DNA from: Notolepis coatsorum
Lineage: Eukaryota > Chordata > Actinopteri > Aulopiformes > Paralepididae
Reading direction: 5' to 3'
Length of the DNA: 64,000 nucleotides
Assembly: GCA_963971535.1 (NCBI GenBank)
Contig: OZ020592.1
Location: 122,923,465 to 122,987,464 of the forward strand
A model generated the notes under the pieces. It saw nothing but the letters and a program-made list of their open reading frames with translations. It had not been told where the DNA came from and did not search any database. Positions 2,599 through 56,357 of the stretch are shown piece by piece (position 1 is the first letter of the stretch; every line of letters starts with the position of its first letter). The position numbers and the translations under genes are program-made.

Positions 2599-5465
2599 TT
2601 ATTTTAATTTTTTTTATATATATTTATTTTTTATAATTTTTTAAACATACACATAAACATAACAACATAAAATTAGATATAGAAGCATTAATTAACAGTA
2701 CACATCCAATGAAATCACCATTTAAATAAATGTATTATACGAGATATACAACTAATACTTGCTATCTAATACCCTACACACATATGCTCTCGCTCGCTCC
2801 CCCCCCCCCCCCCGGACCCCCACTTGGATAATCCATCCATTATCATTCGCTCCTAACCAGGCACTACAATTCATATGCTATCTTTTATTCTCTCCACCAC
2901 TTCTAACCACATTGCAATTTTGGATTCACTGACACCTAAAATTCTTGCTGTAGATATTTCTAGATAAATCACATCGAGATATGTAAGAATCCAAACCTTC
3001 CGACACATTTTTTCCGGTTGAAACCATCGTGATGCTATCAGCTTTTTAGCCGCTGTGATACCAGATAAAACGAATCTCTTTAGCTGTATAGGGACTGCAA
3101 ACTCAAAAACATCATTCAACAGCAATACAGAGGGGTGTACAGGTATATTCAGAATTAAGAAATTTGATAATTGCTGGGACACTTCTTTCCAGAATATCTT
3201 AACTGGTGGGCAATCCCAGTACATGTGCATACATGTACCCTCATCCCCATTTGTACATAAGGAGCATCTGGAGTCTTGTTTAAGTCCCATTTTGTTCAAT
3301 CTTATAGGAGTCAGGTATGTCCTATGAATATAGTTAAGATTAATTTGTTGATGGTCCGGGTTACGTGACGCAAGTCGAACGTTTGCCCAGGCTTCTTGCC
3401 AATCAAAATTTATTTCCAGGTCTGGTATATCCCTCCTCCAGACTGAGTCTAGGGGGAGGATTTCATACGAGGACGTTAGTAATTGATGATAAAAATCTGA
3501 TACAAAACATCTCGATGTCTCTCTTTCATAGAAGAATTTGTGGTATCTGTGGTGTTCAATTGGTATCCTTAATGGGACTCCATGAGCCTTCAAACATGCC
3601 AATAACTGTGCGTAAAAATAATATGTGGAACTGGTGAGATACAATTTTTTATGTATGCCTTCATATCTACAAAAACCCTGTTTGTTGAAAACATCTCCTA
3701 ATGTGTGTATGCCCTGCTTTTCCCATTTAGGGTATCTTATAGGTCGTTTTCCAATCAGGAGTGCATTGTTATTGAATAGGGGAGTATGACTATGCCATTT
3801 ATGTGAGTTAGAATATTTTTTTTGTGTTTCACGCCATATCCGGATCGCATGAGTAATAATGGGGCCAAATTTAAATTCGCATTGCTTAATTGATAATATG
3901 GTGTATACTATGTCCTGCAGTCTATGTGGTGCTACTATATTTACTTCAAAATTTCTCCAGGATACTGATGCTTGGGAATCAAACCAGGTTGTCAGTGGTC
4001 TTAAAGTGTACGCCTTAAAATAGTGGTAAAAATCTGGAAATGCCATACCTCCGTCGGCTTTGTTTCTCTGTGCGGTGGATCTTTTTATACGTGGTGGTTT
4101 GTTATTCCAAATAAATTTGTATGCGGTAGAGTGTAATTTTTTCCAGTAACCATCTGGAGGGGGTAACGGTAGCATTGAGCTAATGAAATTGATTCTAGGT
4201 AGGACATCCATCTTAACTATTGATACCCGTGCCTGTACTGAGTTTGAGTACTGAGTATTTGATCTTATCTTGGATTTTTATGTAATTGTACTTCACCGTT
4301 TGGCTTATAGTAGGGAATACTTCAACTCCCAAACATCTAAAGTGTTTAACCATTGGTATTTCTTCTGGAAGGAGTATATTTTTTGCAGGGGCATTAAGTG
4401 GAAGGAAAGCCGACTTTGGCCAATTTATCCTAAATCCCGATAGATTGCCAAATTCCTCAATCAACTTGAGAAGATGAGGCATTGCGGTGTTAGGGTTTTG
4501 CATGAACAGTATTACGTTGTCCGCATATAAACAAATTTTATGTTGTGTGCCCTTGATTGCGATTGGTTCTATGGATTGGGATTGTCTTATATATTGTGCT
4601 AAAGGCTCTAATGATGAATCGAATAGTCCGGGACTAAGAGGGCAATCCTGTCTAGAAGAGCGTGATACCGGAAAGATTTCGGAGGTGATTATACCTGTTG
4701 TAATCATGGCCGATGGGTCTTTGTATAATACTTTAATCATATCGATAAATCCTTTTCCTAACCCCATCTTTTCTAATACTGCCCATAGATAAGACCATTC
4801 CAACCTATCAAAAGCTTTCATCGCATCCAGGGACAGCATCGCCTTAGGTGTGGTGTCATCCTTGTTCGCATCTAGTACGTGTAGTAATCGTCTTATATTA
4901 TCCGTGATCAAGCGGCCTCTTATGAAGCCAGTCTGATCCGGATGAACTAAAGACGTCATATGCTTTTGAAGTCTGATGGCTAATACCTTAGAGTACAGCT
5001 TGATATCGGTTCCGAGGAGGCTTAAGGGTCTATAACTACCGCAATCGGTGGGGTCTTTGTCTGTTTTAAGGAGGACTGTTATGAGTGCAATATTGTCGTT
5101 CTAATGGAAGTTCCCCTCCTTGATTGAGTATAAAATCATATTAAGTAATAGGGCTCCAATTACGTCCCAACATGAGAGGTACATTTCTGGTGGGATACCG
5201 TCTCTTCCAGGAGCCCTACCACTTTGCATTTCAGATATGGCCTCCCTAAGTTCATCTAGTGTGATGGGTGTTTCTAACTGTTTAGCGTCATCCTCTGATA
5301 GTTTAGGGAGGTTAATTTGATTTAGATATGTCCATTTTGTTTTGATCGAAGGTCGTTTCTGATTTATACAAGTTGGAGTAGAACTCTTTGAATGTCTCGT
5401 TGATTTTTTTAGGGTCTGTAACAAGTCCTTGTTGTGCTTTAATGGTAGTTATATCTGCAAATCTT
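2599..5465 (-). mobile_element. 5'-truncated Tx1-type L1 LINE (copy A)
   Basis: The minus-strand element is flanked by a perfect 17-base direct repeat (2582-2598 and 5466-5482), which is a target-site duplication. Its 3' end (left side) has an A-rich tail seen as T-rich plus-strand sequence at about 2599-2645. Its 5' end stops inside ORF2 upstream of the reverse transcriptase. A run of C (about 2799-2813) lies in the 3' UTR. It is closely related to copy B at 17145-21676. Confidence 0.88.
2871..5424 (-). pseudogene. Tx1-type LINE ORF2, reverse transcriptase to C-terminus, broken
   Basis: Three consecutive minus-strand frames (5424-5101, 4959-4213, 4211-2871) together cover the pre-RT linker, the reverse transcriptase and the C-terminal domain of an L1-like ORF2. 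Visible motifs are GRAPGRDGIPPEMYLS, SLDAMKAFDRLEW with the first catalytic Asp, and a damaged active-site box: YADNVILF instead of YADD. The QGCPLSP box is also altered to QDCPLSP. A CCHC-type motif (CSLC then H and C within the next 20 residues) lies near the C-terminus. Frame breaks near 5100 and 4212 and the missing endonuclease make it inactive. Confidence 0.88.
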
Positions 5466-16180: not shown

Positions 16181-17126
16181 CAGAGAATGGACGGCGACCA
16201 GTGAATGTTCCCGACTGCATCGTCAACAAGAGACACATCATCAGAGACCTGTGAACCAAGAGACTTCTGAACACACAGTGTCCACATTGTTATGTATTTA
16301 TTTAATTTTTATGTGTTACTGTTTGGCCCTGCCACACGACCGACAGAGAACACCTTGACAAACAACGACGCAACATCATTCAGATTAATACCTTCACAAG
16401 CAGGAAACTTTTCACACAATTGTATGTATCTGCAAAACGATGAACTAGGGATGTGATGAAAAGAAATCAATGAGAAAGCATTAACAATGGTTAGTAATAA
16501 TGAGCTAAAATGTATTGCTGAAGGAAGAAGTGGTCACATGATCACATTACATCACATTTGAATTACTTAAGTTACAAAATTGCCTGATTCTAAGTAAAGA
16601 TCAATCTTTAAATCACAGATGAAAGTGACACTCAAACTCAGGTTAAATACAACTGGATCCTAAGTAATTTCATCAAGAATCATTATAAAATTTGCATATA
16701 TATATATTTTTGAACAGTTTCCCATAATCAATCATGTTAGTTTAATTAACCACCAGGTTAACGGTTGTTAAAATGTTTTTGTACACATTAGCCTTATGTG
16801 TAAATCCTATTCCTAATAATCATGCACACAATTTTGTTTTTCACCCTGTGCACTCTGACCACACAGAGACAGTGCATGTATTTAATTGGTTTATTACGAT
16901 GCCTGTATGTACAACCATCACATTAGCTCCCCTGAGTCACGACATGAACGACTGAAGGTATGCCAAGATATATGTTAATTATTGTTTGATATCAGAGTTG
17001 AGGACCACTCATTGATATAGATATTTTGAGCGATAAATAAAAGAAAAGGGTGATATCTATTCCCACATCTCTGATATCAAAATAACACAGACCGCAGTCC
17101 AGTCGATCATGTCATGAATCATATAT
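16181..17126. other. Noncoding stretch of the LTR element
   Basis: A/T-rich, with short frames only. Its right edge is the first copy of the 18-base target duplication of the nested LINE (17127-17144). Confidence 0.5.
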
Positions 17127-20100
17127 GTAAATAATTCTATTTTAGGAGTCAAGTATGTCCTGTGAATATAGTTAAGATTGATTTGTTGATGATCCGGGTT
17201 CCTTGATGTAAGTCGGACATTTGCCCAGGCTCCTTGCCAATCAAAGTCATTTTCCAGGTCTGGTATATCCCTCCTCCAGACAGAGTCAAGTTGGAGGGTT
17301 TCATACGAGGACGTTAGTAATTGATGATAAAATTCTGAAACAAAACCTCTCGATGTCTCTCTTGAGTAGAAGAATTTGTGGTATCTGTGGTGTTCAATTG
17401 GTCTGTCTAATGGAACACCGTGAGACTTCAAACATAGCTCTAACTGTTTGTGAAAAAGCCATGTGGACTTGGTGAGATTAAATTTTTTGCGTATTTCTTT
17501 ATCACTACAAAAACCCTGTTTGTTAAAAATATCCCCTAATGAGTGTATGCCTTGCTTTTCCCATATAGGGAATCTTATAGGTCGTTTTCCAATTAAGAGA
17601 GCATTGTTATTGAATAAGGGAGTATGGTTGTGCCATTCTTGTGGGTTAGGATTTTTTTTTTGTGATTCACGCCATATCCGGATCGCATGAGTAATTATGG
17701 GGCCAAATTTTCGTTCACAGTGCTTGATTGGTAGTTTAGTGTGTGCTATGTCCTTCAGTCTATGTGGGGCTACTATGTTTTCTTCTATTTTCCTCCAAGA
17801 TGCTAATGCTTGGGAGTCAAACCATGTTGTCAATGGACTTAATGAGTACGCCTTAAAATATAGGAAAAAATCTGGAAATGCCATGCCACCATCTGCTTTA
17901 TTTCTCTGTGCGGTGGATCTTTTTATACGTGGTGGTTTGTTATTCCAAATAAATTTGTATGTGGAGGAGTGTAATCTTTTCCAGTAACCCTCTGGAGGGG
18001 GTAACGGTAGCATTGAACAGAAGAAGTTGATTTTAGGTAGTACATCCATCTTAACTATTGATATCCGTGCTTGTACTGTGTTCTTAAGTTTTGCCCATCT
18101 ATCAAGGTCGTCTTTGATTTTGTTTTGGATTTTTGTGTAGTTGTGCTTCACCGTTTGTCTTATGGTAGGGAATATTTCCACTCCCAAGCATCTGAAATGT
18201 TTTACCATCGGTATCTGTCCTGGGAGGGTTGTATCTTTTTTTGCAGGGGTGTTAAGTGGAAGGAAAGCCGACTTCGGCCAATTTATCTTAAATCCCGATA
18301 AATCACCAAAGTCCTCAATCAACTTGAGCAGATGAGGCAATGTGGTGTTGGGGTTTTTCATGAACAATATTACATCGTCCGCATATAAACAAATTTTTTG
18401 TTGTGTGCCCTTGATTACGATAGGTTCTATGGATTGGGATTGTCTTATATATTGTGCTAACGGCTCTAATGATAGATTGAACAGACCGGGACTAAGAGGG
18501 CAACCTTGTCTGGCTGAGCGCGATACCGGAAAGATATCGGAGATGATTGTGCCTGTTATAATCATGGCCGATGGGTCTTTGTATAATACTTTAATCATAT
18601 CGATGAATCCTTTTCCTAACCCCATCCTTTCTAGCACTGCCCACAGATACGACCATTCCAGCCTGTCAAAGGCCTTCATAGCATCCAGGGACAGTATCGC
18701 CTTAGGTATGGTATCCTCTTTGTCGGCATCAAGTACGTGCAGTATACGTCTTATGTTCTCAGTGATCAGGCGGCCTCCTATGAAGCCAGTTTGGTCCGGG
18801 TGAACTAAAGACGTCATATGCTTTTGTAATCTGATGGCTAATACCTTAGAGTACAGTTTGATATCTGTTCCGAGGAGGCTTACAGGTCTATAACTACCGC
18901 ACTCGTTGGGGTCTTTGTCTTTTTTAAGGAGGACTGTTATGAGTGCAATATTGTCGGTTTTATGGAAGTTCCCCTCTTTGACTGAGTATAAGATCATATT
19001 TAGTAATAAGGGGCCAATTATGTCCCAACAAGAAAGGTACATTTCTGATGGGAAACCGTCTCTTCCTGGAGCCTTACCACTTTTCATTGCGGTTATGGCC
19101 ATCTTGAGTTCCTCTAGTGTGATCGGTATTTCTAACTGTTTAGCGTCATCCTCTGAAAGTTTAGGGAGAATAATTTGATTAAGAAATGTGTCCATTTTGT
19201 TTTGATCGAAGGTCATTTCTGATTTATATAAATCGGAGTAGAATACTTTGAATGTATCGTTTATTTTTACCGGATCTGTTACAAGTACTTGTTGTGCTCT
19301 AATGGTAGTTATATCTGCAAATGTTGCATTAATTCTTAATCGCATGGCTAATAGGTGGCTGGGTTTGGAACCATGAGAGTACTGCTGTTGTCTTGTGCTG
19401 CGTATTTGTATTTCCGATTGTTGTCTGTATATGTCATTGATCTCTATTTTTAGTACGTTAACTTGATTTTCTAGTCGAGTTGAGTTGTTGTATTTCAGAG
19501 AATTAAATAACGTTGAGTAAAGCGTTTCCAGCTCATCCAGTTTTGTGTTTTGATTCTTGCGCATTTTGGAGGAAAAGCTATCCGTGAAGTCTTTGATCAT
19601 TCCCTTTACCGACATCCATATTATTCTGGGGTCTTGCACCGAGTTTGCATTCTCCCGTTGGAATACTATAAGAGCTTCTTTGAGTTGTGTAATGAATTCC
19701 TTGTTGTTAAGCAGCAATGAGTTAAATCGCCATCTTGGGGCTCGGGAGGATAGTATACCAAATGTACCTTTAAGGAGTAAATAACAGTGATCTGATAGTG
19801 CGTTGGGTATCATTTCCACTTCATAATTATCAAATAGTTTCTGTGATGCAAAGACATAATCTATTCTGGATAGTGTCTTATGTCTTGCAGATCGACAAGA
19901 GTACTTTCGGGTCGTGGGGTTAAGTAACCGCCATAAGTCCTTTACACCTGTAATCTTTGACCAATCCTTTAATGCCTTCGATGAATTCTTTTGTTCGCTG
20001 GAAAAGGCGAGGTAAGATTTGTCTATCCTTGGGTTCCAGATGGCATTAAAATCCGCTCCTATTATAAATGAGTAATCGGGAATGTCTAACATTGCATTGG

Positions 20101-20473
20101 TTAGTGTAGTGAAGAAATCTTCTTCGTACAAATTTGGGGCGTATACCGCTATCAACGCTATTTTCCTGTTCTTATGTTCAATCTTAGCTATAGTTATCCG
20201 ACCTTCTACATCAGACCATACTCCCTTTAGTACAATATTCAACTTACGTTTAACGACTATTGCTACACCCCGAGTTCTCGTACCAATAGAGGAGTGACTG
20301 ATATTATGGTATATGTTGTCCGCTAATTTACCTATGTCTTTCCCTAGAATGTGTGTTTCGCTTAGCAGAGCAATGTCCACATGTTCTTTTTTCATCAGTG
20401 TGAGCACGCTTTTGCGTTTAAGTTGGTTATTTATTCCCCCGGTGTTCCATATCATTATATTCAAACTAGCCAT
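17057..20473 (-). CDS. Tx1-type LINE ORF2: AP endonuclease plus reverse transcriptase (C-terminally truncated)
   Basis: The 1138-codon frame is uninterrupted. It opens with an apurinic-type endonuclease: MASLNIMIWNTGG at the start, a catalytic Glu at about residue 39 (LLSETH), the DFN motif at about 141-143, RIDYVFAS at about 203-210 and SDH at 227-229. The reverse transcriptase follows: YRPVSLL near 528, SLDAMKAFDRLEW with Asp about 597, ARQGCPLSPG near 654-663 and YADDVILF at about 697-704. All catalytic residues I can check are present, unlike in copy A. The last ~30 codons after YLTP come from flanking DNA because the LINE ends at 17145. The CCHC motif and C-terminal domain seen in copy A are therefore missing. 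Endonuclease and RT look intact, but full retrotransposition competence is unlikely. Confidence 0.92.
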   Translation of the reverse strand: MASLNIMIWNTGGINNQLKRKSVLTLMKKEHVDIALLSETHILGKDIGKLADNIYHNISHSSIGTRTRGVAIVVKRKLNIVLKGVWSDVEGRITIAKIEHKNRKIALIAVYAPNLYEEDFFTTLTNAMLDIPDYSFIIGADFNAIWNPRIDKSYLAFSSEQKNSSKALKDWSKITGVKDLWRLLNPTTRKYSCRSARHKTLSRIDYVFASQKLFDNYEVEMIPNALSDHCYLLLKGTFGILSSRAPRWRFNSLLLNNKEFITQLKEALIVFQRENANSVQDPRIIWMSVKGMIKDFTDSFSSKMRKNQNTKLDELETLYSTLFNSLKYNNSTRLENQVNVLKIEINDIYRQQSEIQIRSTRQQQYSHGSKPSHLLAMRLRINATFADITTIRAQQVLVTDPVKINDTFKVFYSDLYKSEMTFDQNKMDTFLNQIILPKLSEDDAKQLEIPITLEELKMAITAMKSGKAPGRDGFPSEMYLSCWDIIGPLLLNMILYSVKEGNFHKTDNIALITVLLKKDKDPNECGSYRPVSLLGTDIKLYSKVLAIRLQKHMTSLVHPDQTGFIGGRLITENIRRILHVLDADKEDTIPKAILSLDAMKAFDRLEWSYLWAVLERMGLGKGFIDMIKVLYKDPSAMIITGTIISDIFPVSRSARQGCPLSPGLFNLSLEPLAQYIRQSQSIEPIVIKGTQQKICLYADDVILFMKNPNTTLPHLLKLIEDFGDLSGFKINWPKSAFLPLNTPAKKDTTLPGQIPMVKHFRCLGVEIFPTIRQTVKHNYTKIQNKIKDDLDRWAKLKNTVQARISIVKMDVLPKINFFCSMLPLPPPEGYWKRLHSSTYKFIWNNKPPRIKRSTAQRNKADGGMAFPDFFLYFKAYSLSPLTTWFDSQALASWRKIEENIVAPHRLKDIAHTKLPIKHCERKFGPIITHAIRIWRESQKKNPNPQEWHNHTPLFNNNALLIGKRPIRFPIWEKQGIHSLGDIFNKQGFCSDKEIRKKFNLTKSTWLFHKQLELCLKSHGVPLDRPIEHHRYHKFFYSRETSRGFVSEFYHQLLTSSYETLQLDSVWRRDIPDLENDFDWQGAWANVRLTSRNPDHQQINLNYIHRTYLTPKIELFTYMIHDMIDWTAVCVILISEMWE

Positions 20474-38561: not shown

Positions 38562-38680
38562 GCTTACGGCCATGCCAACCTGTACACGCTCGATCTCGTC
38601 AGATCTCGGCCGCTACGCAGGTTGGTCCTGGTTAGTACTTGGTTGGGAGACCGCCTGGGAATACCAAGTACGGTGTGCTT
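38562..38680 (+). pseudogene. 5S rRNA-derived sequence
   Basis: The 119 bases align end to end with vertebrate 5S rRNA: GCTTACGGCCATGCCAACCT at the start, GATCTCGTCAGATCTCGG, the internal promoter region GGTTAGTACTTGGTTGGGAG and ACCGCCTGGGAATACCAAGT near the end. Differences in helix II are paired: CCAACCTG on one side and CAGGTTGG on the other form a perfect helix, where the usual form pairs CCACCCTG with CAGGGTCGG. The terminal helix is weaker (GTGTGCTT). No T-run terminator follows directly. It could be a transposed 5S copy, part of a 5S-headed SINE, or a diverged 5S variant. Confidence 0.8.
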
Positions 38681-45853: not shown

Positions 45854-48726
45854 CAGTTGGCTCTAAGCAGTTCAGCGCAGGTTAGAAGAGACAGTTGGCT
45901 CTAAACAGTTCAGTGCAGGTTAGAAGAGACAGTTGGCTCTAAACAGTTCAGTGCAGGTTAGAAGAGACAGTTGGCTCTAAACAGTTCAGCGCAGGTTAGA
46001 AGAGACAGTTGGCTCTAAACAGTTCAGCGCAGGTTAGAAGAGACAGTTGGCTCTAAACAGTTCAGTGCAGGTTAGAAGAGACAGTTGGCTCTAAACAGTT
46101 CAGTGCAGGTTAGAAGAGACAGTTGGCTCTAAACAGTTCAGTGCAGGTTAGAAGAGACAGTTGGCTCTAAACAGTTCAGCACAGGTTAGAAGAGACAGTT
46201 GGCTCTAAACAGTTCATCGCAGGTTAGAAGAGACAGTTGGCTCTAAACAGTTCAGCGCAGGTTAGAAGAGACAGTTGGCTCTAAACAGTTCAGCGCAGGT
46301 TAGAAGAGACAGTTGGCTCTAAGCAGTTCAGTGCAGGTTAGAAGAGACAGTTGGCTCTAAACAGTTCAGCGCAGGTTAGAAGAGACAGTTGGCTCTAAAC
46401 AGTTCAGCGCAGGTTAGAAGAGACAGTTGGCTCTAAACAGTTCAGCGCAGGTTAGAAGAGACAGTTGGCTCTAAACAGTTCAGTGCAGGTTAGAAGAGAC
46501 AGTTGGCTCTAAACAGTTCAGTGCAGGTTAGAAGAGACAGTTGGCTCTAAACAGTTCAGCGCAGGTTAGAAGAGACAGTTGGCTCTAAACAGTTCAGCGC
46601 AGGTTAGAAGAGACAGTTGGCTCTAAACAGTTCAGCACAGGTTAGAAGAGACAGTTGGCTCTAAACAGTTCAGCGCAGGTTAGAAGAGACAGTTGGCTCT
46701 AAACAGTTCAGTGCAGGTTAGAAGAGACAGTTGGCTCTAAACAGTTCAGCGCAGGTTAGAAGAGACAGTTGGCTCTAAACAGTTCAGCACAGGTTAGAAG
46801 AGACAGTTGGCTCTAAACAGTTCAGCGCAGGTTAGAAGAGACAGTTGGCTCTAAACAGTTCAGCGCAGGTTAGAAGAGACAGTTGGCTCTAAACAGTTCA
46901 GCGCAGGTTAGAAGAGACAGTTGGCTCTAAACAGTTCAGTGCAGGTTAGAAGAGACAGTTGGCTCTAAACAGTTCAGTGCAGGTTAGAAGAGACAGTTGG
47001 CTCTAAACAGTTCAGCACAGGTTAGAAGAGACAGTTGGCTCTAAACAGTTCAGCGCAGGTTAGAAGAGACAGTTGGCTCTAAACAGTTCAGCACAGGTTA
47101 GAAGAGACAGTTGGCTCTAAACAGTTCAGCGCAGGTTAGAAGAGACAGTTGGCTCTAAACAGTTCAGCGCAGGTTAAAGGAGACAGTTGGCTCTAAACAG
47201 TTCAGCGCAGGTTAGAAGAGACAGTTGGCTCTAAACAGTTCAGCGCAGGTTAGAAGAGACAGTTGGCTCTAAACAGTTCAGCGCAGGTTAGAAGAGACAG
47301 TTGGCTCTAAACAGTTCAGCACAGGTTAGAAGAGACAGTTGGCTCTAAACAGTTCAGCGCAGGTTAGAAGAGACAGTTGGCTCTAAACAGTTCAGCGCAG
47401 GTTAGAAGAGACAGTTGGCTCTAAACAGTTCAGCGCAGGTTAGAAGAGACAGTTGGCTCTAAACAGTTCAGTGCAGGTTAGAAGAGACAGTTGGCTCTAA
47501 ACAGTTCAGCGCAGGTTAGAAGAGACAGTTGGCTCTAAACAGTTCAGTGCAGGTTAGAAGAGACAGTTGGCTCTAAACAGTTCAGCGCAGGTTAGAAGAG
47601 ACAGTTGGCTCTAAACAGTTCAGTGCAGGTTAGAAGAGACAGTTGGCTCTAAACAGTTCAGCGCAGGTTAGAAGAGACAGTTGGCTCTAAACAGTTCAGT
47701 GCAGGTTAGAAGAGACAGTTGGCTCTAAACAGTTCAGCGCAGGTTAGAAGAGACAGTTGGCTCTAAACAGTTCAGCACAGGTTAGAAGAGACAGTTGGCT
47801 CTAAACAGTTCAGCGCAGGTTAGAAGAGACAGTTGGCTCTAAACAGTTCATCGCAGGTTAGAAGAGACAGTTGGCTCTAAACAGTTCAGTGCAGGTTAGA
47901 AGAGACAGTTGGCTCTAAACAGTTCAGCGCAGGTTAGAAGAGACAGTTGGCTCTAAACAGTTCAGCGCAGGTTAGAAGAGACAGTTGGCTCTAAACAGTT
48001 CAGCGCTGGTTAGAAGAGACAGTTGGCTCTAAACAGTTCAGCGCAGGTTAGAAGAGACAGTTGGCTCTAAACAGTTCAGCGCAGGTTAAAGGAGACAGTT
48101 GGCTCTAAACAGTTCAGCGCAGGTTAGAAGAGACAGTTGGCTCTAAACAGTTCAGCGCAGGTTAGAAGAGACAGTTGGCTCTAAACAGTTCAGCGCAGGT
48201 TAGAAGAGACAGTTGGCTCTAAACAGTTCAGCGCAGGTTAGAAGAGACAGTTGGCTCTAAACAGTTCAGCGCAGGTTAGAAGAGACAGTTGGCTCTAAAC
48301 AGTTCAGCACAGGTTAGAAGAGACAGTTGGCTCTAAACAGTTCAGCGCAGGTTAGAAGAGACAGTTGGCTCTAAACAGTTCAGCACAGGTTAGAAGAGAC
48401 AGTTGGCTCTAAACAGTTCAGCACAGGTTAGAAGAGACAGTTGGCTCTAAACAGTTCAGCGCAGGTTAGAAGAGACAGTTGGCTCTAAACAGTTCAGCGC
48501 AGGTTAGAAGAGACAGTTGGCTCTAAACAGTTCAGTGCAGGTTAGAAGAGACAGTTGGCTCTAAACAGTTCAGCGCAGGTTAGAAGAGACAGTTGGCTCT
48601 AAACAGTTCAGCGCAGGTTAGAAGAGACAGTTGGCTCTAAACAGTTCAGCGCAGGTTAGAAGAGACAGTTGGCTCTAAACAGTTCAGCGCAGGTTAAAGG
48701 AGACAGTTGGCTCTAAGCAGTTCAGT
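45854..48726. repeat. 38-bp satellite array, about 76 copies
   Basis: The unit is AGAAGAGACAGTTGGCTCTA + AACAGTTCAGCGCAGGTT. Variation is confined to a few positions: CGC/TGC/CAC before AGG, rare TTCATCGC, one GCTGG, and AAACAG/AAGCAG. The rare variant AGGTTAAAGG starts at 47171, 48083 and 48691, exactly 24 and 16 units apart, so the array shows no net indels over that span. The first and last units share the AAGCAG variant. It is not a CRISPR array: units abut without spacers. Confidence 0.97.
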
Positions 48727-48925: not shown

Positions 48926-48945
48926 AATAGGTCCCATCTTTCCCT

Positions 48946-50092
48946 TGTAGTGGAATAATTGTGATCGCATATCAATTAATATGCTTGCTATACACACCTA
49001 AAGAACACATTGGCCTTGACACTAAACAATACTGTGTCTGCCTTCGTGACATCTTGGCTTCCTGTTTTATCATGTGACCTCGACACGACCACAGGGTCTG
49101 ACTTCGTTTACATCACCTTGACCATGTACCATATCTGGGACCTATCTGTTTACAATTCGTATGACACCTCAAATGAGATAAACCTTTGATATACAACTAA
49201 ATACTGTGTCCATAATGACCGCATGGCCCATTGTAATGTCTGTGACCAAGGTCTGTTTTATATTCACATGTTAAACACATAATCACCTTTTGTTTCCAAA
49301 GGCCTGATATATGTCCCAAGAGTTTCAAACTGATGACACATTGCGACACAAAGGAGACAATTGACCCTTCTGTGGACTCACATTACAACACAAGGCAGAC
49401 TTGACCTTCTTACAATCTCTGCCGGCAGAAGCATTCTACGAAACCCGCTGACTATAAGTGTTTTTACGACCCTCCAACTGTCAAGTTCATAGCTTTCACA
49501 TTTGGGCCACCTTCACTTCCTGAAAACACACACACATAGACACACACACATAGACACACACACATAGACACACACACACATAGACACGCACACACATGCA
49601 TGTGCACGACAATTGACCCTTATGCGATCTCTGACAAACAGGGACTTCCTCTAAGAAACTAACTGACTACAAGTGTTTTACGGCATGTCAACTGTCTCAA
49701 GTTCACAGGTCGAGTGATGTTGCAAGACAATGCAACACCTCACTTCCTGAAAACACACACACACACACACGCCCACGCATAGGTAAGCACACACACATAG
49801 CCGTACACACACGCACATACATACACAAGCACACACATGCACGTGTAAGCATAACACACACACACACACACACTTTCACTTCCTGAAGTCACACTCACAC
49901 ACACACAACACTGACGGAGAATGCTATATAAACCCTGAAACTCCATCTATCGTGGCACATGTTGGCATCTTGTTTTGCTTTACTGTCAGTATGTGTCCAG
50001 CCATGTGGGGCTGCTCAAATTAAACCCAACGAACAACCATTTGTTTCCGTGTTAATCTTTATTTCAACAGCTACACTTAAATTTCCAATACA
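48946..50092 (+). repeat. 5' LTR (1147 bp)
   Basis: TG...CA ends, a TATA box (TATATAAA at about 49925), an ATTAAA signal near 50018 and CA microsatellites. An internal imperfect duplication pairs GACAATTGACCCTTCTGTGG with GACAATTGACCCTTATGCGA, and CTATAAGTGTTTTTACG with CTACAAGTGTTTTACGG. Confidence 0.93.
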
Positions 50093-50093
50093 A

Positions 50094-50112
50094 CTTGACG
50101 TCACGACAGGAT
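50094..50112 (+). promoter_or_regulatory. Primer-binding-site-like sequence
   Basis: CTTGACGTCACGACAGGAT follows the LTR. It resembles retroviral PBS sequences of the TGGCG...ACAGG type, with A in place of the second G of TGG. It also resembles the site after the other LTR element's 5' LTR. A donor-like CCG|GTGAGCTG follows near 50289. Confidence 0.5.
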
Positions 50113-51566
50113 ACATTGCACTGGATTCAGACGGGACCGGCCGAACGGAGGTGCAAGCAGGCCTGCCAATCTCTACCTCGACACCAAAGCCTGTCCGAGA
50201 AGAGGGATCACTCATCCGAACGACCGGGCCGTCTGACGACAGCGCACTTGTATCGAACCAGAGGACACCTCTTTGAAACCTCGACCTCCGGTGAGCTGTT
50301 GAAATTCAGATCTTACTAAAAACGTATTAAAAAAAATATATATTCAAATTTTTTTTGGGTGGATAATAACATAATAACTTATAATCTAACCTAATAAATG
50401 CTCTATGTTCCTATTTTATAATCTTTTAAAAACGCACTAACCTCACCACTGAGAAAGGGTGCCGTCTTGCTGGAATCTCATTATCTCACAAAGATTCCCG
50501 CTGGAGGAGTGAAGTTTACCAGGGTGGGTATCCCACAGTTTTCAAGGTTTTGTGTAAAAAACAACAACCAGTTGATATTACGCTGTCAAGGTTTTGTGTT
50601 ACAAAGACAACCAGTTGATATTGCAGTTTTCAAGGTTTTGTGTAACAAACAACAACCAGTTGATATTGCAGTTTTCAAGGTTTTGTGTAACAAACAACAA
50701 CCAGTTGATATTGCAAAAGGTCGCGGTCAGAACAAATATACGGTGTACATCGCTTGCTGTTTCCTGACAGAAGCCGACAGTTTTTCCTGACATTTGTACT
50801 AAAACGAAATTTCAGACTCAGATAGACGTATCTGTTTAAAGTATCCGTGAACACGAAGAATTGGCTTTTGCACAAGTACGTGGCAAAAGCAGGGTAAAGA
50901 TGCTTCAAACTCCTCCAGTGGAACCCTGTGCGACAAGAGATGTTCATTCAATTAAAGGGGCAACATCGTATTTAGTTTGATTACTGTTCAAAACACAGAA
51001 AGCGGGAAGAGGGACTGTGACGCGAAAGGGAGCAGTGAACAAACGTTACGGGTGTGGTCGGTAGCGAGTGAATGTTTGATGCATGTTCCTTATTGGTCAG
51101 AGAAATGTGGTTTTCCAGCAAACGGCTCTTTCTCGTTAAATCAGATTGACACACCAGACATGAAATTAACGGAAGGAGGTGACAAATTGATGACAAACGG
51201 AAACAATTTGGACTCTGTTTACAGACATAAAAACTAATTAAAAAATTGTTTAAAAATATTTTGTTCTCTCATGGTGGGACTATCTGCCTATGCTTTGGAC
51301 CTCAATAGAATAGTATTAGATAGATTAAACATTGCTGGCGTTACAATTCATGTTCTTATCATGGTGTTGTTGTCACTGATATAATGCTGTATGTTTTTTA
51401 TCTTTGGATTATTTTATTTTCTTGCTTACTCTGTGGTTTTATTGTTTTTTGTTTCTGTTTTCTATCTAGTCTTTTTTAAGACAAGATTTGCTATTAAGGA
51501 CACATGAATATGTCAGAATTTACACATAGCTACTAATTAAATTTACGGACGGGCGCAAAACAAATT
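50113..51566 (+). other. Leader region of the LTR element, no gene recognised
   Basis: An open frame starts in the LTR just after the TATA box (49959) with a hydrophobic N-terminus and ends at 50276. It has no further support. The rest is A/T-rich, with a tandem repeat at 50538-50718. Confidence 0.45.
50538..50718. repeat. 45-bp tandem repeat, about four copies
   Basis: Unit: TTTTCAAGGTTTTGTGTAAC + AAACAACAACCAGTTGATATTGCAG. The last two copies are nearly identical and the first two diverged. Confidence 0.9.
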
Positions 51567-51803
51567 ATGAACGAAAATCAGACTACGCAGACAGGCACCT
51601 CATCTCTCTGTGACGTGTGTGGAAGAACAGACCCCGGCTGTGAGCAGGGACCCACAGAAACCGAGTTAAAATTAAGAAGATTAAACGCGCAATTAGAACG
51701 AGAGTTATCTGACAGAACCCGCGAGTTCATGAACATCGATGACGAACACTGGGAAGTGTTGGACATGTTGTCACAGGTGCTCTTCCGTTTAACGGGAGAA
51801 TAA
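51567..51803 (+). CDS. Small ORF in the LTR element, 78 residues, novel
   Basis: The frame starts at an ATG after an A-rich leader and ends with TAA. The N-terminal part contains CDVCGRTDPGC, a CxxC-type metal-binding candidate. The C-terminal two thirds are highly charged and leucine-spaced (ELKLRRLNAQLERELSDRTR), predicting a short coiled-coil helix. No signal peptide or membrane segment is seen. I do not recognise a family. The clean acid/base composition and position between the LTRs suggest a real accessory protein, but coding is inferred, and expression would need splicing or a subgenomic transcript. Confidence 0.45.
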   Translation: MNENQTTQTGTSSLCDVCGRTDPGCEQGPTETELKLRRLNAQLERELSDRTREFMNIDDEHWEVLDMLSQVLFRLTGE

Positions 51804-51919
51804 CAAGCCTACAAAAACATATATACATCATTGTCAAAGTGACAGACACTACGTTTAAACACTCCGGTTTCAACCTACCATATCACAGACAAGGCGCTTG
51901 ATATAGGGGACACGTAATT

Positions 51920-52114
51920 ATGTCAGAATTGACATTCAAAGCCATCACAGATAGAACAGTAAAACGTGATGAATGGAAATCATTAAGAGATTTTATAAAT
52001 GCTAACAAGAGGCTAGGATACGTACACCACTGTTTTGGGACAAATTCCGGAATCGAAACCATTAGACTCTCATGTGACATGACACTGGTTGCCCTATCAA
52101 TCCTGAAGAAATAA
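51920..52114 (+). CDS. Small ORF in the LTR element, 64 residues, novel
   Basis: It starts ATGTCAGAATTGACATTC (MSELTFKAI...) and ends with TAA. The protein is mixed, with no signal peptide, and contains DEWKSLRDFINANKRLGYVH. A second, truncated version of its start (GGACACATGAATATGTCAG, then AATTTACAC) lies upstream at about 51498 but hits a stop after eight codons. This suggests a local duplication of a 5' segment. No family recognised. It sits 134 bases before the Spindlin-like start, with an acceptor-like site at 52176 in between. Confidence 0.4.
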   Translation: MSELTFKAITDRTVKRDEWKSLRDFINANKRLGYVHHCFGTNSGIETIRLSCDMTLVALSILKK

Positions 52115-52156
52115 ATTAGAACTAACAGCCGACGGTACATTCAAATCCCTGTACTT

Positions 52157-52176
52157 CTCTCTCTCACTGCCTTTAG
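52157..52176 (+). promoter_or_regulatory. Candidate 3' splice site
   Basis: The tract CTCTCTCTCACTGCCTTTAG is followed by AGGAGCC. It lies about 70 bases before the first ATG of the Spindlin-like frame and could join a leader donor (near 50289) to the gene. Confidence 0.45.
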
Positions 52177-52247
52177 AGGAGCCGGGTCTCGGCGTCTTGC
52201 CCTCCCTAACTCGACCCTCACATCCTGGCCTGCTGGAAACCACTCCG

Positions 52248-53107
52248 ATGACACGGTGCAGAAAACGCAGCAGCAAGGAGCTGAGGCCCTCGACCCTCAT
52301 CACCCCAGCCCCCGACCCCGATAACATGCTGGGCAGAAGGATCGCCCACGGGTGGTGGGAGGAAGGCAACGTGACCAAGTGGAAGGGCACGGTTCTGCAG
52401 CACCTCACGATAGCTGCCTCTACATGGTCAAGTACGACAAACGCGACTGCGTCTACGGCATCGAGCTGTTCAAAGACGAGCGCATGTCCAACCTGGAGGT
52501 GCTGGCGGAGAAAGTCGTGAACAATAAGATCAAGGTGCCCCCCGGGGTGGAGGAATTGGTGGGGCGAACCGTGGACCACCTCTTCGAGGGAGATGACGGG
52601 GAGAAGAACGCATGGAGGGGCATGGTCCTGTCCCACGCCCCCGTCATGACACAATGGTATTTCATCACCTACAAAAACGATCCGGTACTGTTCATGTACC
52701 AACTCTGGGACGACTACAAGGGCGGAGACCTCCGCATCCTGCCTGAGTCAGAATACAGACATCTGCTGCCAGAGGACGGAGAACCGGACGACGGAGTAGT
52801 GGGCCTGGTAGGGAGGAGAGTGGACTACCAGGACGGCACCGTGAGGAGGACCGGCTTGGTGATCTGCCAAGTCCCAGCCAAACCCACAGTATATTACATA
52901 ATGTTCGACGGGGACTACCACATCTATGTCTACGACCTTGTGAACTCACATGGAGCCCCTGAACAATACGTCTACGACCTTGTGAACTCACAGGAAACCA
53001 CTGACCAAAAAGAAATGCTCTCCCACGCGCAAAACACACCGAAAGAACAATCTAGGAGGAAAAGAAAAGAACGGAAAATTCTCTACCACAACAAGACAAA
53101 GATTTGA
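52248..53107 (+). pseudogene. Spindlin-like gene inside the LTR element (one frameshift)
   Basis: The product resembles Spindlin (SPIN/Ssty family), a nuclear histone-methylation reader made of three Tudor-like repeats. Repeat 1: GRRIAHGWWEEGNVTKWKGT, then after a frame change VKYDKRDCVYGIELFKDERM. Repeat 2: VGRTVDHLFEGDDGEKNAWR through FITYKNDPVLFMYQL and GDLRILPE. Repeat 3: VGRRVDYQDG through DGDYHIYVYDLV. In repeat 2 the residues matching the H3K4me3 aromatic cage of SPIN1 (F, W, Y, Y in HLF, AWRG, ITY, FMY) are all present. The matching aromatic residues of repeat 1 (HGW, KWKG, KYD, VYG) are also kept. The C-terminus has a duplicated YVYDLVNS block and a basic RRKRKERK tail, unusual for the family. 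The frame shifts near 52400-52415, consistent with loss of one base, so a full-length product is not directly encoded in this copy. The start could also be a TTG-led frame from 52197; I chose the first ATG. No introns are visible inside the three repeats, as expected for an RNA-derived capture. Confidence 0.88.
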
Positions 53108-54261
53108 TAACCAAAGACTGTGGCCTGCCAAAGGTGGATTTCGTGGGGACAACAGAACATTTCGCTTGCCATGCCGGAGTGGGGGTCCGAGGGATGGATG
53201 GGACAGACGCATCGGGATCCGGCCTCCATCCACACAGGGAAGTAAAGCACACACACACACGTCCGGCTGCAGTAAAGAACAGCTTGTTGAATGGTTATAG
53301 CCTCTAACACAACAAAGCGCCTGATACAGTAGTAAATCGACACCGGCTGACCGACGCTATGCAAGATATAATTATTGTTTGATACATGACAAAGTTTGAA
53401 AATGTCTTACGGAATAGTTATACAATCACTATAGTTATACAATCACTATATGGTTTCATGAAGGTCATAGTATTTTCCTTTACAATATCACTATACAATC
53501 TATAAATGATTTAAATATTTTGTTCTGAAACATATCCTTTGAGTTTTATTTACCAACATCCATATATATATATATGTTATTGAAGCTATATACAAACTGA
53601 CATTTTGACCGTTTATCAGGGGTGACCATAGCTTTTCCCACTCCAATCCCACCCGGCCAGAGGTTTTCCTGGGCCCATGTGGACGAGGGGCCAGCAGCAC
53701 AGACAGTGACCACGACCGGAGGCTGCAAACCTTTCTGACCGCACCACCAGCCTGTCCGGCGTGAGACGAGAGAAACAGACCTACTGACACACTGGCACAC
53801 ATCCCCCTCAACACGCTGACACCCCCCCCTCTGTGTCCTATAGACACACACACACACCCCGCCCCGACCCAGGAGGACATTCCCCCCGCTGATTGTTGTG
53901 CCCCCACCCTGGCTCTCTCTTTCTCTGATAGAACACTGAACAATTTTCTCTGATAACGCACGTTGAACAATTGGCTCACTCTCTGAACGCTGCTACGGAG
54001 CCTGGACACTTCGCCCGTGTTTTCTCTATAGCTCTTTCTCTCTCTCGCCTACCCATTCAGAGGAAACATGCACGGATGAAGTGGACAACCGCGGCTCCTG
54101 CTACACACAACTGTCACTGCTGATTTACTACCCCTGCATTGCAGAGTTTTATACATACATGTATATTCTATTTCAAATTAGTTTGACGGCGCTTTTAATT
54201 GTCCGTTTCGGATTGTTATTTTTTTATATACAGAGAATTGCTTGGTTGCTAAGCCACTTAT

Positions 54262-54274
54262 AAAAAGGGTGAAA
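54262..54274 (+). promoter_or_regulatory. Second polypurine-tract-like site
   Basis: AAAAAGGGTGAAAT contains the same 13 bases as the tract directly before the 3' LTR (55141-55153). An internal second copy resembles the central PPT of some retroviruses, but could be a chance duplication. Confidence 0.4.
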
Positions 54275-54399
54275 TAATTGTCATACAATATGCATTCAAA
54301 ACGTGTCTGTAAGCATTATCTCAGACGCCGCTTATTTTTACTTTTATACATATAACTATATACACTGTGGACGATATGTACCTCGTGCCTTAGTTGTCA

Positions 54400-54745
54400 T
54401 GTTTTAATTTCCATTTGAATTTGGTGAGATTTAGCTTTGTTTTAGATGCCCCATTTGCCTTTTATTTTGATATGATTTACTTATTATTTTACTCTACTTA
54501 CCTATTAAATTTGATATGAATAACTTTTCCTTATTGTTTATCTTTCCCTCTTAGACTTCACATGCCCCATTTGCCTTTTATTTTTATATGATTTACTTAT
54601 TATTTTACTCTACTTACCTATTGAATTTGATATGATTTACTTATTATTTTACTCTACTTACCTATTGAATTTGATATGAATAACTTTTCCTTATTGTTTG
54701 TCCTCACCTCTTAGACCTCGCATGCCCCATTTGCCTTTTACTTTA
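54400..54745. repeat. Nested tandem repeats (A/T-rich)
   Basis: CCCCATTTGCCTTTTATTTT and TGATTTACTTATTATTTTAC recur two to four times. The arrangement is a longer unit of roughly 130-170 bases with an internal ~54-base duplication. Confidence 0.85.
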
Positions 54746-55140
54746 ATTACCTCTTACAGTTCTGTGTGACTGCTAATTTCTGTTTAGAAGCAATGTTTAG
54801 AGTCAATGCGATTTGTAGAGATCTTTTGTTTTACGTACTGTTTTATCTGAGATGTTCTTTTATTTCTGTATGCCTATTGAGTTATTTTTTTTTTGTATTT
54901 TATTATTACAATTTTTTTCTAGCTATTTCCCTGCCACAACATTCTACCTCAAAATTACCTCATTTTTAATGACTGTGACTTATCTTTGGATATTGGAGAC
55001 TATGTTTGATTGCGTTTGTCTTTATATGCTGTAGTTGATTAATCTTTAGGAACTATGTTTGAATTTTAATTTTTTTTTCCGCTGCTATGCTCACTCAAGT
55101 TCGATGTTATGTTCTTGGCATATTAATTCATATTTCGATC

Positions 55141-55153
55141 AAAAGGGTGAAAT
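55141..55153 (+). promoter_or_regulatory. Polypurine tract
   Basis: AAAAGGGTGAAAT is purine-rich and immediately adjacent to the TG start of the 3' LTR, the expected site for plus-strand priming. Confidence 0.65.
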
Positions 55154-56286
55154 TGTAGTGGAATAATTGTGATCGCATATCAATTAATATGCTTGCTATA
55201 CACACCTAAAGAACACATTGGCCTTGACACTAAACAATACTGTGTCTGCCTTCGTGACATCTTGGCTTCCTGTTTTATCATGTGACCTCGACACGACCAC
55301 AGGGTCTGACTTCGTTTACATCACCTTGCCCATGTACCATATCTGGGACCTATCTGTTTACAATTCGTATGACACCTCAAATGAGATAAACCTTTGATAT
55401 ACAACTAAATACTGTGTCCATAATGACCGCATGGCCCATTGTAATGTCTGTGACCAAGGTCTGTTTTATATTCACATGTTAAACACATAATCACCTTTTG
55501 TTTCCAAAGGCCTGATATATGTCCCAAGAGTTTCAAACTGATGACACATTGCGACACAAAGGAGACAATTGACCCTTCTGTGGACTCACATTACAACACA
55601 AGGCAGACTTGACCTTCTTACAATCTCTGCCGGCAGAAGCATTCTACGAAACCCGCTGACTATAAGTGTTTTTACGACCCTCCAACTGTCAAGTTCATAG
55701 CTTTCACATTTGGGCCACCTTCACTTCCTGAAAACACACACACACATAGACACACACACATAGACACACACACACATAGACACGCACACACATGCATGTG
55801 CACGACAATTGACCCTTATGCGATCTCTGACAAACAGGGACTTCCTCTAAGAAACTAACTGACTACAAGTGTTTTACGGCATGTCAACTGTCTCAAGTTC
55901 ACAGGTCAAGTGATGTTGCAAGACAATGCAACACCTCACTTCCTGAAAACACACACACACACACACGCCCACGCATAGGTAAGCACACACACATAGCCGT
56001 ACACACACGCACATACATACACAAGCACACACATGCACGTGTAAGCATAACACACACACACACACACTTTCACTTCCTGAAGTCACACTCACACACACAC
56101 AACACTGACGGAGAATGCTATATAAACCCTGAAACTCCATCTATCGTGGCACATGTTGGCATCTTGTTTTGCTTTACTGTCAGTATGTGTCCAGCCATGT
56201 GGGGCTGCTCAAATTAAACCCAACGAACGACCATTTGTTTCCGTGTTAATCTTTATTTCAACAGCTACACTTAAATTTCCAATACA
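55154..56286 (+). repeat. 3' LTR (1133 bp)
   Basis: Aligns throughout with 48946-50092. Length differences are confined to CA microsatellites. Confidence 0.93.
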
Positions 56287-56357
56287 CCCTGCTGCTGGCT
56301 CCGCCTTATCTTTACACACCCTGTTGTCTAGTCATCAACCGCAAAACAGACTTCAAT

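What the first reader, a model, noticed from the sequence alone, without database searches (positions are those of the whole stretch)
48946..56286. LTR retrotransposon that has captured a Spindlin chromatin-reader gene
The sequence shows paired ~1.14-kb LTRs with TG/CA ends, a 4-bp CCCT duplication, a PBS-like site and a PPT. Between them is a three-repeat Spindlin-like coding region in place of gag-pol. Spindlins read H3K4me3 and H3R8me2a. A mobile copy could let the element, or a helper virus-like relative, influence chromatin at its own insertions. LTR near-identity means it moved very recently.
Basis: partly seen in the sequence, partly recalled or inferred. Interest (0 to 1): 0.92.

Follow-up and report, generated by a model that had tools for sequence, protein, structure and literature searches.

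The report
Defective fish retrovirus carrying host Spindlin
A family of virus-like jumping elements in a fish genome carries, in place of its core viral genes, a copied host gene that reads chemical marks on chromatin, has kept that gene largely intact while multiplying, and shares its genome with fuller viral relatives that could move it.

Summary
Window 48946-56286 is one copy of a retroviral family (LTRs 1147 and 1133 bp, 3 mismatches, CCCT duplication). The genome holds 25 young copies with Spindlin (subfamilies A 7, B 18) plus older ones; LTR pairs were seen around 21 of 25. The donor is an intron-bearing host spindlin gene; homology starts at an inferred exon edge and stops 13 nt before its stop codon, as in capture of a spliced mRNA. 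Element Spindlins form one clade and evolved under purifying selection (A-B dN/dS 0.29), strictest in the H3K4me3-binding domain (0.16). The window copy is frame-shifted. Twelve further loci share the leader at 86-90% without Spindlin; pieces from three together gave gag, protease, RT, integrase and envelope frames of a class I retrovirus, the likely helper. Spindlin lies in its gag region. A conserved accessory gene lies upstream. Similar backbones carry divergent Spindlin cassettes, suggesting exchange. That Spindlin counters silencing is inferred, untested. Searches listed no Spindlin-carrying element.

The parts
48942..48945 (.). target-site duplication, left copy (CCCT)
48946..50092 (+). 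5' LTR, 1147 bp; TATA-like box near 49925, ATTAAA at 50019
50093..50115 (+). PBS-like stretch; reads TTGGCGT in subfamily B and in the Spindlin-less relative, TTGACGT here; primer tRNA not assigned
50093..51173 (+). leader shared with the Spindlin-less retrovirus in the same genome (468-bp probe 86-90% at 12 loci; later parts 85-92% in L063)
50291..50292 (+). splice-donor-like GT (CTCCG|GTGAGC); GGTGAG kept in the 2 A and 3 B copies aligned
51567..51803 (+). smORF1, accessory gene under purifying selection (A-B dN/dS 0.12; 0.21 for the window copy); ends early here; similar to the N-terminal part of a 165-aa frame in another retroelement family
51920..52114 (+). smORF2, 64 aa, no clear selection; similar to the C-terminal part of the same 165-aa frame
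52153..52176 (+). splice-acceptor-like pyrimidine tract and AG upstream of the Spindlin start; kept in the A (window, L040), B (2) and old copies aligned, missing in L002
52248..53107 (+). captured Spindlin gene, intronless, three Spin/Ssty repeats, frame-shifted near 52.4 kb in this copy (open pieces 52248-52520 and 52352-53107)
52940..53107 (+). C-terminal tail with a basic stretch, absent from the host gene; no match in 57 database relatives beyond the shared Spindlin end and chance-level hits (E 5 or more) in P0047
53108..55153 (+). 3' internal region without gag, pol or env frames; in the old copy the matching region is collinear with post-gag, integrase-end, env-frame-start and PPT pieces of the relative
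55141..55153 (+). polypurine tract
55154..56286 (+). 3' LTR, 1133 bp
56287..56290 (.). target-site duplication, right copy (CCCT)

Best explanation
This is one copy of a non-autonomous endogenous retrovirus family in a ray-finned (acanthomorph) fish. Shown: the element shares leader, U5 and PPT with a class I, envelope-bearing retrovirus present in the same genome, and an old copy keeps collinear scraps of that virus, so it is a deletion derivative of such a virus; it carries an intronless copy of the three matched exons of the host's C7 spindlin gene in the gag region; across its lineages this gene has been under purifying selection while the family multiplied. Inferred: capture happened through a spliced chimeric RNA packaged by the virus; a spliced LTR transcript expresses Spindlin; proteins of the fuller relative act in trans to move it. 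Preferred function (inferred, about 40%): the element's Spindlin binds H3K4me3-bearing chromatin, possibly with H3K9me3, at its own and its helper's proviruses and keeps them transcribed against silencing, much as HBV recruits Spindlin1 through HBx.
For: Multi-copy: 45 rows, 57 of 57 candidates scored; LTR pairs around 21 of 25 A+B copies; exact 4-bp duplications at 7 of 9 pairs inspected, the window included; LTR pairs identical in L033, L034, L035. Donor: host C7 exons; junctions at a splice-acceptor edge (C7:9276031) and 13 nt before the stop; tree 100/98 with host C7, element clade 93/76. Selection: A-B core dS 0.655, dN 0.190; over the full frames 0.33 with 0 of 1000 bootstraps at dN>=dS; TLD2 0.16, TLD3 0.33, TLD1 0.66. 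W62, W72, Y91, F141, W151, Y170 kept in all 10 element sequences aligned. Relative: 14 of 40 leader rows lie away from Spindlin copies; CCHC, RVP, RVT_1, RNase H, rve plus MLVIN_C, TLV_coat in pieces of three of these 14; collinear post-gag, integrase, env and PPT remnants in the old copy. Analogy: PMC10400593 (abstract and passages).
Against: No transcript, protein or movement data. Trans-mobilisation is not shown: only 3 of 14 Spindlin-less leader loci were examined, in pieces, and their U3 is only about 70% like the element's. Variation within subfamily B does not show selection (17 nonsynonymous, 9 synonymous, ratio 0.58) and some close A pairs have ratios of 1 or more on few changes. TLD1 is weakly constrained (0.66 A-B; 0.93 and 0.78 against the host); F94 is changed in all 10 element sequences and Y98 is Cys in B, so H3K9me3 or H3R8me2a reading may be reduced. 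PMC4161474 (abstract and passages) reports the opposite sign, Spindlin1 repressing HBV and HSV-1; a later correction of two of its blots exists (PMC7732092, listing only). The structure prediction for the Spindlin fragment failed (pLDDT 50.7).
Confidence: 0.8

Rival explanations
1. Spindlin is passenger cargo, like an accidental oncogene transduction: the elements spread because LTRs, leader and packaging signals are intact, and the gene does nothing for them.
For: Subfamily B variation shows no clear selection. Broken copies exist (window frameshift, L026 insertion, L028 and L030 truncated). Two close A pairs have ratios of 1.5 and 1.0 and a third has 9 nonsynonymous and no synonymous change.
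Against: A-B divergence shows dN/dS 0.29 at dS 0.655, 0 of 1000 bootstraps with dN>=dS on the full frames; the histone-binding domain is most constrained; 16 of 18 B copies keep the 290-aa frame, though B is so young that this alone proves little.
Confidence: 0.15
2. Element Spindlin acts as a decoy or dominant negative that blocks host Spindlin-dependent repression, rather than as an activator.
For: Spindlin1 was reported to repress incoming HBV and HSV-1 (PMC4161474, abstract and passages). The partner-binding TLD3 evolves faster than TLD2, and an element-specific tail replaces the host C-terminus.
Against: The five TLD3 groove residues named for HBx contact are kept except K216R in A. Decoy action cannot be read from sequence.
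Confidence: 0.25
3. Spindlin serves against piRNA-directed methylation by competing with host SPIN1 for SPOCD1.
For: SPIN1-SPOCD1 directs methylation of young LINE1 in mouse (PMC11499256, abstract and other passages).
Against: The same paper dates the SPOCD1-SPIN1 interaction to early tetrapods; this host is a ray-finned fish.
Confidence: 0.05
4. LTRs merely flank a pre-existing host gene, or the gene is an LTR-driven retrogene fixed at one site.
For: Host genes inside LTR pairs are claimed for zebrafish (PMC8672886, abstract and other passages).
Against: 25 A+B copies at different sites, with their own target duplications at 7 of 9 pairs inspected, and an intron-bearing donor elsewhere.
Confidence: 0.01

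Closest known systems
Crocodilian endogenous retroviruses with captured KIT-ligand (CrocERV29) and nectin3 (CrocERV31), PMC4299795 (abstract passages, other passages and one section read)
   Same: Host mRNA captured between retroviral LTRs, several copies, intact frames, purifying selection reported.
   Different: Cargo there is a cytokine or an adhesion protein, placed between pol and env or in place of env; here the cargo is a chromatin reader in the gag region, no gag, pol or env frame remains, copies are very young, cassettes seem to have been exchanged, and fuller relatives are in the same genome.
Acutely transforming (oncogene-transducing) retroviruses (recalled) and the fish epidermal hyperplasia virus with cyclin genes (named in the PMC4299795 section read)
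   Same: A captured host cDNA joined to, or replacing, replication genes; defective ones need a helper.
   Different: Those are exogenous; this is a germline family of 25 young copies whose cargo stayed under selection.
Zebrafish ERVs with immune genes inside the LTRs (PMC8672886; abstract and other passages)
   Same: Host coding sequence lies between LTRs.
   Different: The passages seen name five single host genes under LTR control; they describe no intronless multi-copy capture.
Mammalian Spindlin-1 (solved structures)
   Same: Three Tudor-like repeats; key TLD2 cage residues kept.
   Different: Element form has altered TLD1 (F94, and Y98 in B), a new N-terminus and a C-terminal tail with a basic stretch.

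Membership tests
Endogenous retrovirus (class I), defective copy | Paired LTRs TG...CA with short target duplication | tested here: met
   7 of 9 inspected pairs have exact 4-bp duplications
Endogenous retrovirus (class I), defective copy | PBS complementary to a host tRNA | tested here: inconclusive
   PBS-like stretch present and close to that of the relative; primer tRNA not assigned; no tRNA gene in the window
Endogenous retrovirus (class I), defective copy | gag, pro, pol, env of its own | tested here: not met
   Seven further internal window frames scanned, no retroviral domain; membership rests on descent: shared leader, U5, PPT and collinear remnants with a relative that has these genes
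Endogenous retrovirus (class I), defective copy | Relative groups with gamma/epsilon-type retroviruses | tested here: inconclusive
   MLVIN_C and TLV_coat domains, best solved RTs are MMLV point that way; no RT tree was built
Spindlin (Spin/Ssty) family | Three Spin/Ssty repeats | tested here: met
   3 stretches in the window fragment, L032, L040 and L043 proteins
Spindlin (Spin/Ssty) family | Aromatic cage for H3K4me3 in repeat 2 | tested here: met
   F141, W151, Y170 kept in 10 of 10; Y177 is F in A and the old copy
Spindlin (Spin/Ssty) family | Binding to methylated histone H3 | not testable with these tools
   needs expressed protein
Helper-dependent transducing retrovirus | Captured host cDNA in place of viral genes | tested here: met
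Helper-dependent transducing retrovirus | Mobilised in trans by a helper | not testable with these tools
   candidate relative with gag-type, pol and env frames present, action unproven
LTR-flanked resident host gene (zebrafish class) | Gene at its ancestral site, single locus, with introns | tested here: not met

The most novel reading that the evidence does not exclude
A germline satellite retrovirus that weaponised a chromatin reader: it lives off a resident helper virus and in return supplies a Spindlin (with an orphan accessory protein) that keeps the proviral chromatin of both open in the germline. Diverging Spindlin cassettes are swapped between backbones, as expected if host silencing factors or Spindlin partners chase them.
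Probability: 0.3. Interest if true: 0.93.

Novelty: new variant of a known kind. Interest (0 to 1): 0.82.

Why it matters
Viruses such as HBV are known to hijack host Spindlin1 through a viral protein. It offers a natural experiment, with donor gene, capture junctions, two young subfamilies, old fossils and a likely helper all in one genome, to ask whether mobile elements can encode their own chromatin readers against silencing. It also supplies an orphan retroelement accessory gene under strong constraint.

Tried and rejected
Rejected: resident host gene flanked by LTRs; independent retrogene insertions (same LTRs and backbone in the copies examined); CpG decay as the cause of the excess A-B divergence in Spindlin (non-CpG divergence 16.4% in the core against 1.5%, 4.5% and 5.8% in three neighbouring parts); SPOCD1 competition (interaction dated to early tetrapods). 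I first suspected positive selection on Spindlin because it is more divergent than its flanks; dN/dS below 1 argued against it and the distance conflict pointed to recombination.

Led nowhere: structure prediction of the Spindlin fragment (pLDDT 50.7); smORF1 model, helices only, pLDDT 75 (not pursued); protein search with smORF1, no candidate by shared words, although a genome search later found distant relatives; solved-structure search with the 165-aa frame, best E 0.64; tRNA primer assignment; naming the species. Other fish genomes were not tested: no such collection was at hand.
Full report
1. What is there. The element lies exactly at 48946-56286. LTRs are 1147 and 1133 bp with 3 mismatches over 1133 aligned positions and two indels in CA-rich repeats; CCCT flanks both ends. 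The internal 5061 bp holds smORF1 (51567-51803), smORF2 (51920-52114) and a Spindlin gene. The three were scanned; seven further internal frames gave no retroviral domain. In this copy the Spindlin frame is shifted near 52.4 kb, so the window copy is a broken example of the family.

2. Copies in the genome. The window lies in a 3.42-Gb assembly. A protein search (57 of 57 candidates scored) gave 45 rows: element copies plus single exons of host genes. I sort the element copies into subfamily A (window, L002-L005, L028, L030; 7), subfamily B (L009-L026; 18) and older or intermediate copies (L006, L007, L008, and L027 with L029, a tandem pair on C9). LTR pairs were seen around 21 of the 25 A and B copies: 17, where 40 of 94 candidates were scored, and four more (L004, L023, L024, L026). 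The four without a shown pair are L005 (one LTR; an integrase-bearing element lies in its 5' part), L030 (5' LTR only), L009 and L017 (one LTR scored). No pair was shown for the older copies. Nine pairs were inspected at both ends (window plus eight): seven have exact 4-bp duplications, L040 has none, and L041 could not be judged. LTR differences: none in L033, L034 and L035; 1 mismatch in L031; 2 gap positions in L032; 2 mismatches and 2 gaps in L037; 5 mismatches and 4 gaps in L040; 6 mismatches and 22 gaps over 714 columns in L041. With an assumed neutral rate of 1e-9 to 1e-8 per site and year (recalled), the window copy is about 0.1-1.3 million years old and the B copies inspected are younger. 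L002 contains an insertion in its leader. Four LTR places without Spindlin show no leader after the LTR and look like solo LTRs; one, L059, has CTAT on both sides.

3. Gene integrity. 16 of 18 B copies keep a 290-aa Spindlin frame; L012 starts at a later Met (264 aa) and L026 is interrupted. Four of seven A copies keep 288-298 aa.

4. Donor and capture. Host spindlin exons lie spread out on C7, C4, C1 and C27. The protein tree (33 rows) puts the 10 element sequences used with host C7 (100/98) and together (93/76); host C4 groups with spiny-rayed fish Spindlins, from which I infer an acanthomorph host. The old copy L008/L043 is 96-98% identical in DNA to host C7 over 98 and 108 bp at the two ends of the captured stretch, with dS 0.094 over the core. 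Homology starts at a splice-acceptor-like CCCCACAG|GAAG in the host (C7:9276031; the exon edge is inferred, no transcript was seen) and ends 13 nt before the host stop codon. The flanking N-terminal residues and the C-terminal tail have no match in the host pieces fetched. Among 57 database relatives the tail matches nothing beyond the shared Spindlin end, apart from chance-level hits in P0047. This is what capture of a spliced mRNA looks like.

5. Selection. Core Spindlin, A (L003) against B (L010): dS 0.655, dN 0.190, ratio 0.29; over the full frames 0.33, with 0 of 1000 bootstraps at dN>=dS. By domain, A against B: TLD1 0.66, TLD2 0.16, TLD3 0.33; host C7 against A or B: TLD1 0.93 and 0.78, TLD2 0.25 and 0.22, TLD3 0.31 and 0.35. 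Cage residues: W62, W72, Y91, F141, W151 and Y170 are kept in all 10 element sequences aligned; Y177 is Phe in A and the old copy; Y98 is Cys in B; F94 is changed in all 10. W72, F141 and Y170 are described as needed for reading in a passage of PMC10400593; the other cage labels are recalled. Within B (17 copies), 17 nonsynonymous and 9 synonymous variants give no clear signal. Close A pairs vary: 0.31, 0.42, 0.85, 1.00, 1.52, and one pair with no synonymous change, all on few differences.

6. Cassette exchange. With A (L040), B (L032) and the old copy (L043) aligned, A-B is the smallest distance in both flanks (0.051 and 0.015 against 0.157-0.205) in 2000 of 2000 bootstraps, but the largest in the Spindlin core (0.227 against 0.164 and 0.169), smallest in 0 of 2000. 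CpG sites do not explain it. So parts of the A and B backbones share a recent ancestor while their Spindlin cassettes are much older; recombination during co-packaging is the simplest cause (inferred). Two cautions: the protein tree still joins A and B before the old copy (98/97), so the cassettes share some history after capture; and smORF1 shows synonymous A-B divergence of 0.27-0.36, between that of the flanks and that of the core, so the history is a patchwork. A strong local rise in mutation or in rate is not formally excluded.

7. Where the retrovirus went. A 3' internal probe (26 of 26 candidates scored) found only places that I assign to Spindlin copies, apart from a 49-bp piece at C8:61597703. 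A PBS-plus-leader probe (40 of 46 scored) gave 26 rows that I assign to Spindlin copies (one of them, C32:74687809, lies 17 kb from the Spindlin match of L006) and 14 rows without a Spindlin match nearby, 12 of them at 86-90%. Pieces from three of these 14 loci together gave a 670-aa open frame with a CCHC knuckle and a retroviral protease (C8), RT with RNase H (C46), integrase with an MLV-type C-terminal domain (C46 and C7), and an 831-aa open frame with a TLV_coat match (C7): a class I, probably gamma/epsilon-like endogenous retrovirus. That the pieces belong to the proviruses of the leaders rests on spacing: the shared integrase-env stretch starts 6.1 and 6.4 kb after the leader start in the C46 and C7 copies, and these two copies are 98.9% alike over 1748 bp, with LTRs 99.4% over 900 bp. 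Its RT has relatives of 70% identity and less in many fishes (only the 7995 candidates sharing most words were scored). Relation to the Spindlin element: later leader parts 85-92% up to about window 51173 (C8 piece), LTR end 95-98% with B, U3 about 70%. In the old Spindlin copy the sequence after Spindlin matches, in order, the stretch just after the gag-type frame, the integrase end, the env-frame start and the PPT region of this virus (70-76% identity, E 2e-11 to 6e-5). Spindlin and the smORFs thus lie in the gag region of a deletion derivative.

8. Accessory gene. smORF1 shows dS 0.27-0.36 and dN 0.03-0.04 between A (L003, L004) and B (L010), ratio 0.12, and 0.21 for the window copy. It is present in 25 places that I assign to Spindlin copies, without a stop in 23 (60 of 60 scored). 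Fifteen other places, 40-53% identical, carry open frames of 123-171 aa. In both of the two examined, one 165-aa frame contains smORF1-like and smORF2-like parts in order, about 1 kb upstream of RT-like sequence. Most simply, smORF1 and smORF2 are two parts of one older retroelement accessory gene; the reverse order of events is not excluded. It has no Pfam match and smORF1 found no database candidate by shared words. smORF2 itself shows no clear selection.

9. Likely working. A TATA-like box and ATTAAA in the LTR, a donor at 50290 and a strong acceptor at 52176 suggest a spliced Spindlin mRNA; this is read from motifs only, and L002 lacks the acceptor region. Genomic RNA would be packaged and copied by proteins of the fuller relative. 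Spindlin would then act in the nucleus. I favour anti-silencing because HBx uses Spindlin1 to turn H3K9me3-rich cccDNA into an H3K4me3 active state (PMC10400593, abstract and passages). PMC4161474 (abstract and passages; corrected later, PMC7732092, listing only) reports repression instead, so a decoy role is the main rival.

10. Known or new. Searches for Spindlin with retrotransposon, LTR, transposable element or endogenous retrovirus and for related captures listed no paper on a Spindlin-carrying element; the library is open-access PMC only and I saw listings, not every text. Host-gene capture by ERVs is known (PMC4299795). The cargo, its maintained histone-reading domain, the cassette exchange and the fuller relative in the same genome are new as far as these searches show.

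Noticed in passing
window 45854-48725: 38-bp satellite array, 75.6 copies at 97% match, ending about 220 bp before the element.
   Followed up: no
window 38562-38679: 5S rRNA match (70.2 bits), the only Rfam hit at gathering score in the window; could be a gene or a 5S-derived SINE.
   Followed up: no
window 17057-20473: 1138-aa LINE-type frame on the minus strand with endonuclease and reverse-transcriptase domains; similar-looking frames at 2871-4959.
   Followed up: partly
L068, L069 and 13 further places: A second retroelement family with a 165-aa orphan frame upstream of RT-like sequence, matching smORF1 plus smORF2.
   Followed up: partly
L036 (C9:123904857-123914800): Two Spindlin copies in tandem in an old element remnant, 99% alike over about 2 kb, apparently a later local duplication.
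   Followed up: partly
L042 and L032 flanks: Integrase and reverse-transcriptase frames beside or inside copies, apparently other LTR elements nested with these.
   Followed up: partly
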